In this document: piece by piece, positions 56,287 through 63,792 of the stretch
Numbering within the stretch: position 1 is the first letter of the stretch
Layout: the number at the start of each line of letters is the position of its first letter
Source: a virus
Virus record (IMG/VR): IMGVR_UViG_3300033997_000077
Coordinates: 62,001-126,000 of that record
Length of the DNA: 64,000 nt
Strand: one strand, 5' to 3'
Notes under the pieces: model-generated
The model's database searches: none
What the model was told of the DNA's origin: nothing
The model's input: the letters and a program-made list of their open reading frames with translations, nothing else
Program-made: the position numbers and the translations under genes

Positions 56287-58194
56287 TCAATACAAACGTA
56301 GCATTGCACGCTGCTCACGCGGACTTGCTTTGCGGGAAACAGCAGCGTTAGACAGCAGAGGGTTAGCTCCCTGCTTGTCTATGTTCTTTACAGATTTGTA
56401 GATCGCATTGTTGGCGCGGTCGTTGGCAGCACGTTGGTCTAACAGGTACTTCTTCTTGCCTGTCTTACCGTACTCGAACATCTCACTGAGGTGGCCGAAG
56501 TCACGGTCTTTCAGTGAGAGACGACGTTGGCCGCCAAGCACACCGCCGAACGGTTCGGCGCTTGAGAACGATCCGCCGCCCTCGTCGCCGTCCTCTTTCG
56601 GCCCGTACTTCTTCTTCAGCTCCGCGTTGCGCTTTTGGTAGTCGTAGATCTTACGCTGCATCGCCAAGTTTTCATCTTGGTCACCAACCATCTGATCCAG
56701 ACTGTATCCGCCAGCCGCCGCGATTGCACGAATCGGTACAGGTACGCCCATTTCGGTCAACGCACGTAGCGCTTCCATCTGACCTTGATCGCTTTCCGGA
56801 CGCAGCTTCTTCGTCCAGTGCACGGTCGGGATAAACAACTTGGAGCCGTCTTGCATGCGCTCCATGATGTCCATCGCATCGCCCTTCATCATGCCAGACT
56901 TCTTGACCACGTTGCCGCTACGGTTCACGGCCAGCCCGTTGATTACGGCTACCAGCGGGAAGATTTTCTCGTAGAACAGGCGGCGGGTCAAGTCATTACG
57001 GGAAGCCGCAAGGCTCTCCATGAATGCCATCATTCCGGTCTCGCCGTTGGCGAACGTTGCATCGCCAGACAGCAGGGCTTCGCTGGCACCCAGCGCACGT
57101 AACTTGTATTGCGTGGTGGTATCCCAGATGTCGGTGATCTTCCAGAAGTCGCCGCCTTGACGGAACTCGTTCACCTGCACGCCCATGCGAGTTGCGATCA
57201 CCGCACCGATAGGATCCGCATCCGCAGCCAACAGCAAGTCGGTTACGTATTGCAGTTCCTCAACGCTGGGCTCCCACTCCATCCCGTCGCCGAGCTGAGC
57301 GTGAAGGATACCACGTTGACGTCGGCCACTTTCGATCAGCGTGCCACGGTACAGGTTCTTTTCAATCAGCCACACCGGAAGGATCCGGCGATACACCGAC
57401 TGGCCCGCGCCCGTACTGTACGGACGACGAGGCAACCAGATTGTACCGAGCGGGTCGAGTTCAATCTTCTCGCCACCGTCGATCTTGGCGCACAGGTCGC
57501 TGCCGATGTATTCGCGGAGGCGCTTGATCCGGTCGTTGTCACGCTGCATCACGGTACGCGTTTCTTCCGGCACGTTCCACTCCAAGATTGGGTCTTGGTT
57601 GTTGAACGGCAGCGGGTACACGTCGATGTGGTCGTAGCGGTGGCACATGAGGTCGAGGAATTTCTTCTGCTGCTTGTTATACAGCATCGACGACACGTGA
57701 GCACCAGTAACCATCCGATCAGTGGTGATTGCCGGAAGCATACTGCCGATCTTCAGGCGCTCGTTTGTTTCGTAGTAGGGCTCAAGCAACGCATCCTTGG
57801 CCCCGCCGAACGTGTAGTCCGAATAGGGCAACGTGCTGAACATGTCCACGAACGAGCCGCCGATGGGATCGAAGTTGTAGATGTCGCGATAGATGTTGAA
57901 GAGGAACTTGTCGTCGGTGTCGTAGGCCATGCCTTCGAGCAACGGATCGACGTCGATGTCCAATGCCACTGCGCCGAACTGAGTATTGCCGATTGCACTA
58001 CCTGAGCCAGCACCAGCGGCAGAGGTGGACGCAACGCGGCCCCCATACTGCTCATGCTTAGCGCGTTCGCGCATCGTCTTCACCAACTTGTTGAGGGCCG
58101 CATCACTTGACGCGACCCCAATTTGGCGCTTACTCGATTCCGGCGCAGCTCCGCGATGTCTGAAATCGCTCTGTGCCTTGAATGAGATTCCCAT
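56287..58194 (-). CDS. Portal protein
   Basis: 635 residues. Features fitting a portal are a wing-like alpha/beta region with IWLPRRPYSTGAGQSVYRRI and LPVWLIEKNLYRGTLIESG, the stem-type helix region with ALGASEALLSGDATFANGET, MMAFMESLAASRNDL and LTRRLFYEKIFPL, and a long charged C-terminal helix. It forms the dodecameric ring through which DNA enters the head. Its position just after the terminase large-subunit gene supports the call. Confidence 0.8.
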   Translation of the reverse strand: MGISFKAQSDFRHRGAAPESSKRQIGVASSDAALNKLVKTMRERAKHEQYGGRVASTSAAGAGSGSAIGNTQFGAVALDIDVDPLLEGMAYDTDDKFLFNIYRDIYNFDPIGGSFVDMFSTLPYSDYTFGGAKDALLEPYYETNERLKIGSMLPAITTDRMVTGAHVSSMLYNKQQKKFLDLMCHRYDHIDVYPLPFNNQDPILEWNVPEETRTVMQRDNDRIKRLREYIGSDLCAKIDGGEKIELDPLGTIWLPRRPYSTGAGQSVYRRILPVWLIEKNLYRGTLIESGRRQRGILHAQLGDGMEWEPSVEELQYVTDLLLAADADPIGAVIATRMGVQVNEFRQGGDFWKITDIWDTTTQYKLRALGASEALLSGDATFANGETGMMAFMESLAASRNDLTRRLFYEKIFPLVAVINGLAVNRSGNVVKKSGMMKGDAMDIMERMQDGSKLFIPTVHWTKKLRPESDQGQMEALRALTEMGVPVPIRAIAAAGGYSLDQMVGDQDENLAMQRKIYDYQKRNAELKKKYGPKEDGDEGGGSFSSAEPFGGVLGGQRRLSLKDRDFGHLSEMFEYGKTGKKKYLLDQRAANDRANNAIYKSVKNIDKQGANPLLSNAAVSRKASPREQRAMLRLY

Positions 58195-58197
58195 GCC

Positions 58198-58446
58198 TTA
58201 CTCTCCCAGCGGGACGGGCATCGTCACCGCGCACTCACTGCAAAAGCGTGCCGGAACACCGCCAACCAACTCGGCGGCTACGGTCGGGCGCTTGCACTTC
58301 GGGCAGTTGGTCACGCTCTCAACGTGGAGTGCGGATTCCGACAACATGTTGCTATCCGTAATGCGTGGATCGATGTCAACGCCTTGGGCTTTCGCCTGCC
58401 GCGCCGCCAGCACATTTGCAGCTGGGTTGTTGAACTTGGTCGTCAT
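58198..58446 (-). CDS. Small zinc-ribbon protein
   Basis: 82 residues, SD AAGGAGA. The C-terminal half has CPKCKRPT and CSECAV, a two-knuckle zinc ribbon. It lies between terminase and portal genes, with an ATGA overlap. Function unknown; DNA or protein contact during packaging is possible. Confidence 0.6.
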   Translation of the reverse strand: MTTKFNNPAANVLAARQAKAQGVDIDPRITDSNMLSESALHVESVTNCPKCKRPTVAAELVGGVPARFCSECAVTMPVPLGE

Positions 58447-61400
58447 TTTGCTCTCCTTGAACTGAGTACCGCTGTGAAATTACCAATGGTTCCGCTGCGC
58501 GCCTGCGTGCCGCTGCTGGTGCCGATTGCTTTGGCACTGCCTATCACGGCGAGGCGTTGCGGGTTTCGGTCGATGTGCTTGTTAGGGCTATTTACAAGAA
58601 ACGGTGCGTAGTCCGGACTGTTGAGTCCATACGTCGCCAACGCTGTTGCCCGCCACAAGTCATCCGTCAGCCCCACACCTTTGAGAACCTGATTGCGGCT
58701 ATCTTGGATAGTGACAAGTTGATACATGAAGTGTTCGACTGGCTTGTTGGCAAAGCACGCTGGGTAGTTCGTCAGATCCTGATCGTGCAGCAGCTCGATT
58801 ACAGACTTCACGTATTGCGAACGTGGGTACGAGAAGGTGCCGCCTTGCATCTGGTTCTTGACGTCCCACATGTCGCTGTACTTCAGCGAATACTTCTTGG
58901 CAATGTTTACGAGCCCAAGGGCCAGCGCATCTTGCAAGAGTTTCGTTGAGTTCCAACGGTCGGCCAGCAGTACCTTAACGTTGCGCGCCTTGATCATCGG
59001 CACAATGATGTGGTCAAAGATCAACGTGTAGTTGAGAGGTTCGCCGGGACTTGGCATGATCTCAACCAGCAGGTCAACGCTCGGTATCCCGTCAACCAGC
59101 GACATACACGATAGCGCGAAGCTGTTGTTGGTTTCCCCCGCATCCATTGCCAGCACAGATGGGCGGTCGACTTGCTTGATCTTGGTGATCTTGCCGTAGG
59201 CCGTCCGCTCAACCGAGATCCCGTTACTGCGTCGGTCAGTCGATTGGTTATACACGACTTCGTTACGGCCAACTTCACGCATACACTCGTCAACTGTGCC
59301 CGGCGAAATGAATGGGTTCGCTGACACTGGCGGTTGTGCGCCGTAGTCTCGGGCCGCTGCTATCGGGTTCTTCCGGAATTCTTCGTCCAGCATCTCCCGC
59401 GTAACGTTCGGGTTCATCTTCCAAGTTGGCGCGTGGATGCCCAGTATCTTGTTACTGGTCTCCGCTTGCCGGACAATCTCACAGATCTTGTCTCGGAAGT
59501 CGGACGGACTACTGACGTTGAACCCATACGCCGTGTAACACATGTCGTTGCCGCTTGCGACAAGTCGGCCCTCCGCCGAACGCACGGTAAGGCAGGAACG
59601 TTCCAACGCAATCGAGACTTCGGCAGCGCCTGTCTTGATCTTGTTCTTGGAAGCATCGTTGTCGAACCAACCGATTTCATCTATCGCGTAGAAGATACGA
59701 GTTCGACCACGAAGGGTACGTTTGTCAGGGCCAGCGGGGAACACAATGAGGTTGCGATGGCGATACAGAACGAACGTGTCCCGAATCTTCATCACCTCAA
59801 CGCCGTACAGTGACTCGTAGCGTTTGATCAGCGCATGGTAACGCTGGAACCACGGGCTCGCCACGATGTAGCCGAAGTACGGCTCCCACAATGTGTCCTT
59901 TGCCTGAGCCTGAGTCAGGGCCACGAACGTGCCTTGCAGGATCTGGTTATCACCGATGCCATACACGCGCGTCGGCTTCTGCATCTTGAGCACACGGTGG
60001 GTCATGTAGGTCGACAGCATTGCAACCACAACGGACTTGCCGCTGTTCTCGCAAATGATGTTGTCGATCATGTAGCGTTGGCCGCTCGGCACTTCGAACG
60101 TCCACGTGTCTTCCGGTTCGATGTCGGCTACCGCAGCATTGAACACCGCGTAGTCGCCATCGACCAGCCGCTTGAGGTAGTACAGCGGGCTATCGATCCC
60201 GATGTTTTCGAGTGCAGACGCAAGAGACCCACGATCCCAGCGCTCGGCTGAAAAAGTGGGTTCTATGCGCAGCACGGTTTCGCGCAGCTCACTGAAGTCG
60301 TTGTAGGCTATGGCGTCGAGCCAGAGGCTGTGGCCGTCCCGCATGATGGGCCAGCCGCACGCAATACCCAGCGACTGAACCTCTCGCGCCAGTTCCTCAG
60401 TGTCGGCCATCACGGACAGAGCGATCTCGTCGTCGGGGAACAGGGTTGCGAAGAAGGTGTGCAGCAAGGGAGCCGCGTTGGACAGCAGGTAATCCGGCAA
60501 CTGCACCATCTTGTTGTCGCGGTAGCAGCCAGCAGTCAGCGACCGGAACACGGTGTCGATAGTGGTGCCGCCTTCAACGTAAGGAACGTTGTTGTGCACC
60601 AGCATCGTGCCCATCACCGCGTGCGCCATCGTCCGCATCAGCTCGTAGTTGCGGATTGCCTTGTGGCTGTAGTTCTCGGCCAACAGTCCTTGGCGCACCA
60701 TGCCTTCAGCGTACTCGCGGATCGGGAATGGTTCACCAGTGTGATAGTTGGTGGCGACAATGACAGGGGACTTGGCTGCATCTCGGAGCGGGCGATAGCT
60801 CTTGGCCCAGCCTTCGATGCCGTGGGTAGCGGTGCCTTTGATTTCGGTGCCGTTGGCAAGCGTCGCACACACCAGCTGTTCGCCAGCTTCGATGCGTACA
60901 ATCTTGTTGATCTTGAGGGGAGTGGTGTCACAGAGCGAGGCGGTAAGGCCAGCGATTTCGGTCTCACCGTATTCAGCGTCGGGCAGCAGGTCACGCACTC
61001 GGCGCATGCCCACACCAGTAGCCAGCAGCTGGTCACCAGTAACGCAACGTTGTCCGGCGTTCACACCAAGTTCGTTGTAGAACTTGAGCTTGCCTGTGCG
61101 GAAGAACTCAGCGCGGCGGCCCTTGCATTTGGGGCACACGCCATGTTCGAGCAGAGTAACCTTCGCCAGCATTCCGGCTAAGCCTTCCTGCGGTTCGTGG
61201 TTCTCGATTTTCATCCACTCGGTGTCACTGCATATCGGGCAGTATTCACCAAACAGACGCACACCGATCAGCACCTGTTCAAGGTACGGTTCGGCGTTGA
61301 GGAATTCGGAGCCCGTGCACCAACGGTAGAAGTTGGCAGCGTCAGGCATAGAAGAGTCGTCGAACTTCAAGTCACGGGGGACGCGCGTCTTCTGAGCTTG

Positions 61401-61604
61401 CTTGATGATCTGACGGATGTCGATGGACTTTGCAGTCCCTATCTCACTGGGGACGCCTGTGTCGCCGTCGCCAATGTCTACACCCATATCCGCATCGTCA
61501 GCGGCGTCAGTACCACCTAAGCCAATCAGGAAATCAGTCGCGGCTGAACGGCGCGCTACCAAGCGGCGGCGCGCGGTCAGATCCGGCTTCTTGGATCGTG
61601 TCAT
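58443..61604 (-). CDS. Terminase large subunit, interrupted by an intein
   Basis: 1053 residues in the ORF, of which 187-520 are an intein, leaving a 719-residue terminase. Residues 122-160 hold two CPxC pairs (YCPIC and VCPKC), a likely zinc ribbon. After splicing, AGQR joins SGKSVVVAML to restore the Walker A motif. Walker B is IFYAIDE at 637-643. The nuclease domain has AMDAGETNNSFA (Asp821) and LLADRWNS (Asp882). It packages and cuts DNA together with the portal. SD AAGGG. Confidence 0.9.
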   Translation of the reverse strand: MTRSKKPDLTARRRLVARRSAATDFLIGLGGTDAADDADMGVDIGDGDTGVPSEIGTAKSIDIRQIIKQAQKTRVPRDLKFDDSSMPDAANFYRWCTGSEFLNAEPYLEQVLIGVRLFGEYCPICSDTEWMKIENHEPQEGLAGMLAKVTLLEHGVCPKCKGRRAEFFRTGKLKFYNELGVNAGQRCVTGDQLLATGVGMRRVRDLLPDAEYGETEIAGLTASLCDTTPLKINKIVRIEAGEQLVCATLANGTEIKGTATHGIEGWAKSYRPLRDAAKSPVIVATNYHTGEPFPIREYAEGMVRQGLLAENYSHKAIRNYELMRTMAHAVMGTMLVHNNVPYVEGGTTIDTVFRSLTAGCYRDNKMVQLPDYLLSNAAPLLHTFFATLFPDDEIALSVMADTEELAREVQSLGIACGWPIMRDGHSLWLDAIAYNDFSELRETVLRIEPTFSAERWDRGSLASALENIGIDSPLYYLKRLVDGDYAVFNAAVADIEPEDTWTFEVPSGQRYMIDNIICENSGKSVVVAMLSTYMTHRVLKMQKPTRVYGIGDNQILQGTFVALTQAQAKDTLWEPYFGYIVASPWFQRYHALIKRYESLYGVEVMKIRDTFVLYRHRNLIVFPAGPDKRTLRGRTRIFYAIDEIGWFDNDASKNKIKTGAAEVSIALERSCLTVRSAEGRLVASGNDMCYTAYGFNVSSPSDFRDKICEIVRQAETSNKILGIHAPTWKMNPNVTREMLDEEFRKNPIAAARDYGAQPPVSANPFISPGTVDECMREVGRNEVVYNQSTDRRSNGISVERTAYGKITKIKQVDRPSVLAMDAGETNNSFALSCMSLVDGIPSVDLLVEIMPSPGEPLNYTLIFDHIIVPMIKARNVKVLLADRWNSTKLLQDALALGLVNIAKKYSLKYSDMWDVKNQMQGGTFSYPRSQYVKSVIELLHDQDLTNYPACFANKPVEHFMYQLVTIQDSRNQVLKGVGLTDDLWRATALATYGLNSPDYAPFLVNSPNKHIDRNPQRLAVIGSAKAIGTSSGTQARSGTIGNFTAVLSSRRAK
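60045..61046 (-). other. Intein within the terminase Walker A motif
   Basis: 334 residues from Cys1 (codon at 61044-61046) to the last Asn (60045-60047), with Ser as the +1 residue. Splicing blocks are visible: start CVTGDQLLATGVGMRRVRDL, block B NGTEIKGTATHGIEGW, end YMIDNIICEN. The middle resembles a LAGLIDADG homing endonuclease (LLHTFFATLFPDDE, then ELAREVQSLGIACGW), but the usual D-G of the first motif is replaced by DDE, so cutting activity may be lost. Confidence 0.85.
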
Positions 61605-61613
61605 GTATTACCC

Positions 61614-62315
61614 TTATGAGTGCTTGCCGATCACTGCCATTCGTGACGCGGGGTTTTCTGCGCCAGCTACTAGGTTCGCGTTCGCTTTCATAAGGGAAGC
61701 CACTAACTTTCTTTGTTTGGATACGCGCTTCTGCTTCAATGACTCGAAGCCGTCCTCGATAGCGCGTAGCATGGTTGCTCTCTTAACGGAGTCTGGTATG
61801 AATTTTGTTTTGGACAGTAGAAGTCCGAGGGTTTCCATGTCGAGCACAAGGGACGACATTTCTTCGACGTTGCGGTCTACAGATGCCTCTACACCAAACA
61901 CGTCAAGTAGGATAGCCTCGAACTCTGAGGCAGCACGGTCAGCAGCTAACACACTGTGCCCACCGTGCTCCATCAGCAAGGTTCTGAATTCGTTGGTAAG
62001 CCCTTCCATCCGCTGGCGTGCTTCCGCTTCCTCTGCTTCCGAATAGGACACAAAGTTTTCGGGCACGTCCACCGTGTCGCGCGTCACCATGATCGTTGAC
62101 CCAGCATCCTGCTCAAGCCACTCGGCATCTTCCGTAAGGTCGATTTCGTTTTGTGGTTTGCGCGAAGGGGAGTCCACAGGATCGTGTTTAGTGCGCGGCG
62201 GCTCACTGGCTTCTGCCACGTCGATACCGAGCGGCCAGAAGTCGAGCATGTACTCACTGTCAACGTGAAAGTCGTGACCCGAAGGCCACGACTCAGATAT
62301 GCGCTTCTTAAACAA
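61614..62315 (-). CDS. Unknown protein between helicase and terminase
   Basis: 233 residues; starts at a TTG, with GGAG about 11 bases upstream, and overlaps the helicase gene. Acidic N-terminal half (EIDLTEDAEWLEQDAG), then long helices. No family recognised. Position just upstream of the large terminase gene makes a small-terminase role possible, but there is no sequence support. Confidence 0.5.
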   Translation of the reverse strand: MFKKRISESWPSGHDFHVDSEYMLDFWPLGIDVAEASEPPRTKHDPVDSPSRKPQNEIDLTEDAEWLEQDAGSTIMVTRDTVDVPENFVSYSEAEEAEARQRMEGLTNEFRTLLMEHGGHSVLAADRAASEFEAILLDVFGVEASVDRNVEEMSSLVLDMETLGLLLSKTKFIPDSVKRATMLRAIEDGFESLKQKRVSKQRKLVASLMKANANLVAGAENPASRMAVIGKHS

Positions 62316-63792
62316 CTGAACTCAACTCCAATTCACCAAAGCCACGGGCCTTCGGCTTGTCTTTGGGTTTCCGGCTAAAGCGCTCACTGCGATCACCAGA
62401 CTTAACGGGGCGCTTTTTCTTGGGGGTAGGCGCATCGTCATCGTCATCGGCTTTCGCTTTCTCTCGCCGCATGTCGTCGCGGTTCGCATCGCCTCGGCTG
62501 GCTTGGGCCTTGGCCGCACGGGCACCCGCACTCATGGTCGCAAAGTCTTCGGCAACGAGGAACCCAAACAGTTCGCCGTCACGCGCTTTCTCAACTTCCA
62601 TTGGCAGTTCGTGGGTGGCTCGCACTTCCGCATCCACGTAGCTCCACGTGATCAGCACGTCCGCATGCTCGTTCATACCGCGCGAGTAACGGACTTTACC
62701 GCTCTCACTGTCGAGCTGAACAAGGATGATGTAGAGGCGCTGGTTCTGCGTGGCGTGAATCTTGGCTTTACGCACAGCCTCACTGAGGGTTGCCGCTTGG
62801 TTGTTGGTGTCGATGTCTTCGAGCAAGCCGATGTAGTCGATGATGGTAACTTGGTCGTTGTTGGCAGCCGTCATATACAGCACGTCGTCCATAGTCATCC
62901 CGCGCGGGGGCGAGGTGTACTTGAACGCACCGCCAGCTTTCTCCAAGTCCCGATCAATCTTCTCCATTGCGGCATAGATGCGGCGCTTCTCTGCACGGGT
63001 CAGGGTCGCGTTCTTGATCTTGTTGAACTCGACGCCGGACATTGCCGACATATAACGCTTGGTCTCTTGCTCTGCTGTCATCTCCAACGTGATCCGGCTA
63101 ACGGCAATCCCGTTGAGCATCGCCATGTCGTGACCAATGTTCATGGACACGGCAGACTTACCGCCCGAGGTTGTTGCCGCCAGCAGCACGACGCCAGTGG
63201 TAGGCAGACCGAAGTTGCGCTGATCGTATTCAGTCAATCCCGTCAGGTACAGCTTTTCTTTCGGGGCCTCCAACACCTGCTTCGCCAGCTTCAGACCAGA
63301 GCCGCGCTGCCCAGCACCAAAGCCATAGATCTTGGCTTCAGCGATTGCGTCGCGTCCTATGTTCTGCATGCCTTCGATTATGCGGGCGTGTAGGTCTTCC
63401 TCGTCAAAATCTTCACTCTCCTTTTCCTTCAGGCCATCATTGATCATCCGAGAGATTGCGAGCAGTGCGCGACGCTTGCTGTACTTGCCCAGAGCCCTAG
63501 CGAACTTGTCGTAGTGCTTCTTCAGTACGGGCTTAACATCGTCCTCGTCGCGCAGTAACTCGCGTGCCTCTTCGTTTAGTCGAGGGTCTTCGCACAGCGC
63601 TTCCCAGTCAGGCAACTCCCCATCTTCCCGCGCCAGTCGTTGCAATCGCACGAACGCGTTGCGCGTTGGGTCAACGCCGAAGTGTTTGGCATTGAGTCGC
63701 CCCAGCAGAGATAGTCGGTAGTGCTTGTCGACCTTGACGTCGGTTAAGCTGCGCAGCGCGCGCAGCTCAAGGTTTAGTGAGTGTAGCTCCAT
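62308..63792 (-). CDS. DnaB-type replicative helicase
   Basis: 494 residues. Walker A AATTSGGKSAV at 205-215, the H1a glutamate in ITLEM, Walker B VTIIDYIGLL at 315-324, and the H3 glutamine in ILVQLDSESG, all in the RecA-fold core expected for DnaB/gp41. The N-terminal third is helical. The last 70 residues are an acidic run followed by a Lys/Arg-rich tail, likely disordered. SD TAGGTGG. Confidence 0.88.
   Translation of the reverse strand: MELHSLNLELRALRSLTDVKVDKHYRLSLLGRLNAKHFGVDPTRNAFVRLQRLAREDGELPDWEALCEDPRLNEEARELLRDEDDVKPVLKKHYDKFARALGKYSKRRALLAISRMINDGLKEKESEDFDEEDLHARIIEGMQNIGRDAIAEAKIYGFGAGQRGSGLKLAKQVLEAPKEKLYLTGLTEYDQRNFGLPTTGVVLLAATTSGGKSAVSMNIGHDMAMLNGIAVSRITLEMTAEQETKRYMSAMSGVEFNKIKNATLTRAEKRRIYAAMEKIDRDLEKAGGAFKYTSPPRGMTMDDVLYMTAANNDQVTIIDYIGLLEDIDTNNQAATLSEAVRKAKIHATQNQRLYIILVQLDSESGKVRYSRGMNEHADVLITWSYVDAEVRATHELPMEVEKARDGELFGFLVAEDFATMSAGARAAKAQASRGDANRDDMRREKAKADDDDDAPTPKKKRPVKSGDRSERFSRKPKDKPKARGFGELELSSVV

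What the first reader, a model, noticed from the sequence alone, without database searches (positions are those of the whole stretch)
60045..61046. Intein splits the Walker A motif of the large terminase
A 334-residue intein with C1, block B T-x-x-H, and C-terminal Asn followed by Ser sits exactly between AGQR and SGKS of the ATPase P-loop. Packaging would therefore depend on splicing. The endonuclease-like core has a LAGLIDADG-type layout, but the first acidic motif reads PDDE in place of DG, suggesting loss of homing activity while splicing is retained.
Basis: partly seen in the sequence, partly recalled or inferred. Interest (0 to 1): 0.75.

Follow-up and report, generated by a model that had tools for sequence, protein, structure and literature searches.

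The report
Intein interrupting a jumbo-phage terminase P-loop
A 334-residue self-excising protein segment (an intein) sits inside the ATP-binding loop of a large phage's DNA-packaging motor, so the motor can work only after the segment splices itself out; it belongs to an old, already reported group of such inserts, but its DNA-cutting part looks dead and its C-terminal splicing residues are unusual.

Summary
Window 60045-61046 (-) encodes residues 187-520 of a 1,053-aa TerL, between AGQR and SGKS of Walker A. Intein-free relatives (NCTB, PaBG, L022, others) read AGQRSGKS without a break. The insert carries Cys1, block B TATH, a terminal Asn and Ser+1; its AlphaFold2 model (pLDDT 83, pTM 0.87) matches homing-endonuclease inteins best.

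All 23 members of one TerL clade, including cultured Erwinia, Dickeya, Yersinia and Alcaligenes phages, carry an intein at this site, mostly 221-224-aa mini-inteins. A PaBG paper already reports TerL inteins in this group.

Corrections and additions: (1) PDDE lies in the second LAGLIDADG repeat; the first repeat's Asp-Gly reads His-Asn here and Val-Gly in L004, so homing is very probably dead. (2) The core is still under purifying selection (dN/dS 0.14), like the N-terminal splicing half. (3) Three usual C-terminal assisting residues are replaced (block F Asp by Thr, block F His by Gln, penultimate His by Glu), also in L004, whose intein is only 42% identical. (4) TerL of the wider family is an intein hot spot, with one apparent natural split intein. 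Splicing itself is inferred, not shown.

The parts
61047..61604 (-). N-extein of TerL (residues 1-186), ending ...NELGVNAGQR
   Evidence: aligned to intein-free relatives
60045..61046 (-). Intein, 334 aa, inserted GQR|SGKS
61008..61046 (-). Block A (intein residues 1-13, CVTGDQLLATGVG), Cys1 nucleophile
   Evidence: sequence; C1, T10, G13 invariant in A2
60819..60854 (-). Block B (residues 65-76, NGTEIKGTATHG), T72-x-x-H75
   Evidence: T72 and H75 invariant in all 20 P-loop-site inteins of A2
60177..60746 (-). Endonuclease-derived core (residues 101-290), degenerate LAGLIDADG domain
   Evidence: dN/dS 0.137 (0.076-0.210) against L002
60591..60596 (-). Position of the first-repeat catalytic Asp-Gly; reads His151-Asn152 here, Val-Gly in L004
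   Evidence: alignment A6
60348..60515 (-). Second LAGLIDADG repeat remnant (residues 178-233)
   Evidence: hhalign E 0.001-0.005, 0/100 column shuffles reach it
60426..60437 (-). PDDE (residues 204-207) opposite the CDG of active second repeats; L004 has LFELGE
60045..60110 (-). Blocks F and G (residues 313-334, DTWTFEVPSGQRYMIDNIICEN): Thr316 for block F Asp, Gln323 for block F His, Glu333 for penultimate His, Asn334 kept
   Evidence: reference positions from PMC4031507
60042..60044 (-). C-extein +1 Ser, first residue of SGKS (Walker A)
58443..60044 (-). C-extein of TerL: SGKS, Walker B AIDEIGW and nuclease motif MDAGETNNSFA
56287..58194 (-). Portal protein gene, same gene order as in PaBG
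   Evidence: PHROG 16240 E 9.4e-224; PaBG order
62308..63792 (-). DnaB-type replicative helicase upstream, same order as in PaBG and Lu11

Best explanation
This is a vertically inherited class 1-type intein fixed in the Walker A loop of the large terminase of one lineage of PaBG/Yoloswag-like jumbo phages. Most likely the precursor is translated without a functional P-loop and the intein folds as a HINT domain with a nested LAGLIDADG-derived domain. Cys1 then makes the N-terminal thioester, Ser+1 takes over the N-extein, Asn334 cyclises, and GQR is joined to SGKS to give the 719-aa ATPase. The homing endonuclease is dead, so the element no longer spreads and persists by vertical descent. The former endonuclease domain is probably kept because it is part of the fold the intein now needs. 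Shown from sequence: position, blocks, empty sites, clade-wide presence, degenerate catalytic sites, selection. Inferred: that splicing occurs, its order of steps, and why the core is kept.
For: Exact boundary and empty sites. Inteins at the same residue in all 23 members of a 99%-supported TerL clade and in the Lu11/L051 pair, 2 changes on the tree. C1, TxxH and terminal Asn invariant at this site, with Ser+1 of SGKS following. N-terminal splicing region against LAGLIDADG inteins E 8e-8; C-terminal block 0/100 shuffles. AF2 model pLDDT 83, pTM 0.87; PDB hits TliVMA 9.6e-10, PI-PfuI 3.4e-8, PI-SceI 3.5e-7. An earlier model built without LAGLIDADG rows already matched inteins, at low confidence. 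dN/dS: exteins 0.038, intein 0.116, core 0.137, C-terminal splicing region 0.031. Catalytic Asp-Gly lost in repeat 1 and altered in repeat 2; L004 lacks both acids.
Against: Single-sequence Pfam and NCBIfam hits are absent or below cut-off. Three assisting residues of blocks F and G are replaced, which in other inteins can slow or block C-terminal cleavage, so efficient splicing cannot be taken for granted. The high-confidence model used an alignment containing LAGLIDADG inteins, so likeness of the core is not fully independent. The dN/dS estimate rests on one close pair (window and L002).
Confidence: 0.85

Rival explanations
1. Splicing is deliberately slow or conditional, so the intein acts as a post-translational switch that delays DNA packaging until late infection; the non-canonical block F/G residues set the rate. 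(A special case of the best explanation, not exclusive of it.)
For: Thr316, Gln323 and Glu333 conserved between inteins only 42% identical; C-terminal splicing region dN/dS 0.031; intein kept in all clade members despite loss of homing. In mycobacteriophages the penultimate residue tunes splicing rate (PMC5050341).
Against: No direct evidence of regulation; fixation can also reflect the rarity of an exact deletion inside a P-loop. In PMC5050341 a non-His penultimate residue made splicing faster, not slower.
Confidence: 0.2
2. The intein is an active selfish element: the core still cleaves intein-free TerL alleles with an unrecognised catalytic arrangement.
For: Core under purifying selection, dN/dS 0.137; full LAGLIDADG-like fold in the model; an Asp remains near the repeat 2 site.
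Against: Repeat 1 Asp-Gly replaced by His-Asn, repeat 2 Gly lost, L004 lacks both acids; intein presence follows the extein tree, and many members lost most of the domain.
Confidence: 0.06
3. The intein no longer splices, and TerL works with the insertion or is replaced by another terminase.
For: Three assisting residues replaced.
Against: Both exteins under strong purifying selection (0.038); the insertion separates GQR from SGKS, which should not bind ATP unspliced; the residues that act as nucleophiles in all steps are kept. A second terminase was not searched for.
Confidence: 0.05
4. The stretch is a TerL-specific insertion domain, not an intein.
For: Weak single-sequence intein scores.
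Against: Absent from intein-free relatives at the exact residue; orthologous inserts in Lu11 and L051 match intein models; fold hits are inteins.
Confidence: 0.02

Closest known systems
TerL inteins of Lupandier-type (PaBG-like) jumbo phages (PMC7412058); here Yoloswag, pEa_SNUABM, Dickeya JA, Yersinia fHe-Yen9-02, Alcaligenes Afa-NA1, Lu11
   Same: Same gene and same residue GQR|SGKS; C1, TxxH, Asn, Ser+1
   Different: Those are 221-232 aa with penultimate His and block F Asp; the window clade is 333-334 aa with a longer core remnant and Thr/Gln/Glu at the assisting positions. The paper notes intein insertion in several phages; its alignment figure could not be read here.
Mycobacteriophage TerL1-a/-b P-loop inteins (PMC5050341)
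   Same: TerL host protein, Walker A insertion, splicing shown for several TerL inteins (a P-loop one, TerL1-b, among them); penultimate His often replaced in mycobacteriophage inteins
   Different: The 'classic' TerL1-a site is between the invariant Lys and Thr; here the site is before SGKS. Different terminase family; the -b and -c inteins have active endonucleases.
LAGLIDADG class 1 inteins such as TliVMA, PhoVMA, PI-PfuI, PI-SceI
   Same: Fold of the model, TMq 0.42-0.60, with nested endonuclease-like domain
   Different: About 8-12% identity; catalytic Asp-Gly motifs not preserved here

Membership tests
Class 1 inteins | Cys1 or Ser1 nucleophile | tested here: met
   Cys1, invariant at this site
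Class 1 inteins | Block B Thr-x-x-His | tested here: met
   T72-A-T-H75
Class 1 inteins | C-terminal Asn and +1 Cys/Ser/Thr | tested here: met
   Asn334, Ser+1
Class 1 inteins | Penultimate His (G:6) | tested here: not met
   Glu333; also Glu in L002 and L004. Usual but not obligatory: phage inteins with Gly, Lys or Ser exist and the Gly one tested splices
Class 1 inteins | Block F Asp (F:4) and His (F:13), the commonest residues there | tested here: not met
   Thr316 and Gln323 in the gapless alignment with Lu11; block F Asp is present in all 24 other inteins of A6. PMC4031507 calls these positions less conserved, so this does not exclude membership
Class 1 inteins | HINT fold | tested here: met
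   AF2 model pLDDT 83, best PDB matches all inteins
Class 1 inteins | Protein splicing activity | not testable with these tools
   Needs expression
Class 3 inteins | No N-terminal nucleophile; Trp-Cys-Thr signature (B:12, F:4, G:5) | tested here: not met
   Cys1 present; F:4 is Thr
LAGLIDADG homing endonuclease (active) | Two LAGLIDADG repeats with catalytic Asp-Gly | tested here: not met
   Repeat 1 reads His-Asn, repeat 2 PDDE without Gly, no acid in L004; no PF14528 hit in the record
LAGLIDADG homing endonuclease (derived fold) | Homologous sequence or fold | tested here: met
   Repeat 2 by hhalign, 0/100 shuffles; fold, with the caveat that LAGLIDADG rows were in the alignment
TerL, PHROG 17415 | Profile match, and continuous alignment with intein-free TerL on both sides of the insert | tested here: met

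The most novel reading that the evidence does not exclude
A conserved variant of class 1 splicing chemistry in which all three usual C-terminal assisting residues (block F Asp, block F His, penultimate His) are replaced by Thr, Gln and Glu, with a catalytically dead LAGLIDADG domain kept by selection as a structural or regulatory part, together tuning when the packaging ATPase becomes active.
Probability: 0.25. Interest if true: 0.65.

Novelty: new member of a known kind. Interest (0 to 1): 0.42.

Why it matters
It gives a phylogenetically traceable case of an intein that lost homing yet stayed fixed in an essential motor ATPase, with 334-aa and 222-aa stages at the same residue, the latter in cultured phages. 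That makes the question of why immobile inteins persist directly testable. The block F/G substitutions test how far splicing chemistry can drift while still making an essential protein.

Tried and rejected
Pfam and NCBIfam on the single intein: no usable hit. phmmer against PDB: none; profile of three long inteins against PDB: only chance hits. Profile A2 against PDB gave inteins, but designed 'Pizza' repeat proteins ranked at the top and were read as spurious. tblastn of the intein alone against phages: only chance hits. HMMs of the two LAGLIDADG repeats and of the C-terminus, built locally, did not find the window intein above shuffles (only L004's C-terminus did); profile-profile comparison was needed. 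First AF2 model was poor (pLDDT 47). Genome collection scan found no relatives. No LAGLIDADG, HNH_3 or second intein hit elsewhere in the 130-kb record. Class 3 splicing considered and rejected (Cys1 present, no Cys at F:4). An alternative register putting Trp315 at F:4 was considered; the fixed distance to Asn in relatives favours Thr316.

Full report
OBSERVATION. The window is positions 62001-126000 of a 129,992-bp IMG/VR virus record. The ORF at 58443-61604 (-) is 1,053 aa and is a large terminase (PHROG 17415, E 1.8e-269). Residues 187-520 (window 60045-61046) lie between AGQR and SGKS. The intein-free TerL of phage NCTB aligns in two blocks that break exactly there, 58-186 and 519 onward (49-52% identity). 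Other relatives without a P-loop intein (L022, L028, L031, L032, L033, L035, L039, L041, PaBG) read AGQRSGKS contiguously.

IT IS AN INTEIN. Single-sequence searches are weak, but four lines of evidence agree. (a) Orthologous inserts at the same residue, 221-232 aa, occur in cultured Erwinia, Dickeya, Yersinia, Alcaligenes and Pseudomonas (Lu11) phages; those of Lu11 and L051 exceed the cut-off of the intein C-terminal model TIGR01443 and match the Pfam Intein_splicing model at E 1e-7 to 1e-5, just under its cut-off. (b) C1, T72-x-x-H75 and Asn334 are invariant in the alignment of 20 P-loop-site inteins, and Ser+1 of SGKS follows in all. (c) Profile comparison of the window clade with seven LAGLIDADG inteins from other TerL sites gives E 8e-8 for the N-terminal region; the C-terminal block beats all 100 column shuffles. 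(d) An AlphaFold2 model from 27 aligned inteins (pLDDT 83, pTM 0.87) matches TliVMA, PI-PfuI, PhoVMA and PI-SceI best in the PDB (E 1e-9 to 4e-7) and many viral intein-bearing proteins, terminases among them. That alignment held LAGLIDADG rows, so the core fold is not an independent test; a model without them was poor, but its top matches were already inteins.

THE ENDONUCLEASE. Core residues 178-233 align with the second LAGLIDADG repeat only (E 0.001-0.005, 0/100 shuffles). PDDE faces CDG there, so an acid remains but the Gly is lost; L004 reads LFELGE. In alignment A6 the first repeat's Asp-Gly is His151-Asn152 in the window and Val-Gly in L004. Mini-inteins at the same site also keep a remnant that aligns with the second repeat (0/100 shuffles), so this site shows a decay series.

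SELECTION. Window against L002: dN/dS 0.038 for exteins, 0.112 for the N-terminal splicing region, 0.137 (0.076-0.210) for the core and 0.031 for the C-terminal splicing region (first pass). The core is thus about as constrained as the N-terminal splicing half although its nuclease is very probably dead. Most likely it is needed for folding or splicing; this is inference from one pair.

SPLICING RESIDUES. PMC4031507 lists the assisting residues B:7 Thr, B:10 His, G:6 His, F:4 (mostly Asp) and F:13 (mostly His). In a gapless alignment Lu11 reads TYDFTLPKTHQFVTGGIISHN and the window TWTFEVPSGQRYMIDNIICEN. Block F Asp is Thr316, block F His is Gln323, penultimate His is Glu333. L002 and L004 share all three, and WTFEVPSGQRY is invariant although the L004 intein is 42% identical. 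The block F Asp is present in the 24 other inteins compared. Phage inteins often lack the penultimate His, and its role can be taken by the block F His (PMC5050341), but here that is missing too. How this intein activates Asn334 is open.

EVOLUTION. On a tree of mature TerL, all 23 members of one clade (SH-aLRT 99) carry the P-loop intein, as do Lu11 and L051 on a separate branch; two changes suffice. This fits old insertion and vertical descent without homing. No intein-free member was seen inside the 23-member clade. The tree is a quick search with some long branches far from this clade.

PRIOR ART AND VERDICT. Inteins in TerL of several PaBG-like phages were noted in 2020 (PMC7412058). TerL is the commonest intein host in mycobacteriophages, with P-loop and Walker B sites (PMC5050341). 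So this is a new member of a known kind; its odd C-terminal block and constrained, apparently dead core are the new details, and they are what could raise it to a variant if splicing is shown.

Noticed in passing
L062 3771-9410 (1,880-aa TerL); also L058, L059: TerL with three inteins: a 133-aa mini-intein at SPWF|C, a 481-aa LAGLIDADG intein at RGR|TRF before Walker B, and a 528-aa intein in the nuclease motif DAGY|SNNSFA.
   Followed up: partly
L052 4950-8456; L061 4752-8397 (also L053): TerL gene split at SPWF|C: the first ORF ends in an N-intein, the last begins with a C-intein ending VHN|C, and a DUF7487 nuclease-like ORF lies between; probably a natural split intein restoring terminase by trans-splicing.
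   Followed up: partly
L031 5292-6710 (also L027): 473-aa intein with LAGLIDADG domain before the CPKCSD zinc-ribbon-like motif of TerL; the P-loop of the same protein is uninterrupted.
   Followed up: partly
L039 5934-7313; L055 5682-7103: 460- and 474-aa inteins in Walker B (FG|SVDEIGW, FA|SCDEIGY), with Ser or Gly in place of the penultimate His.
   Followed up: partly
L068 1343-2683 (PhiXhv-12) against L069 (PhiXhv-15): Cultured Xanthomonas phages whose TerLs are identical in the tree alignment apart from a 447-aa LAGLIDADG intein just upstream of the P-loop (YA|CVGQRAGKS) in PhiXhv-12 only: a natural intein-plus/intein-minus pair for homing tests.
   Followed up: partly
L034 and L036 TerL; also L048, L052: Walker A reads QRSAKS instead of QRSGKS.
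   Followed up: no
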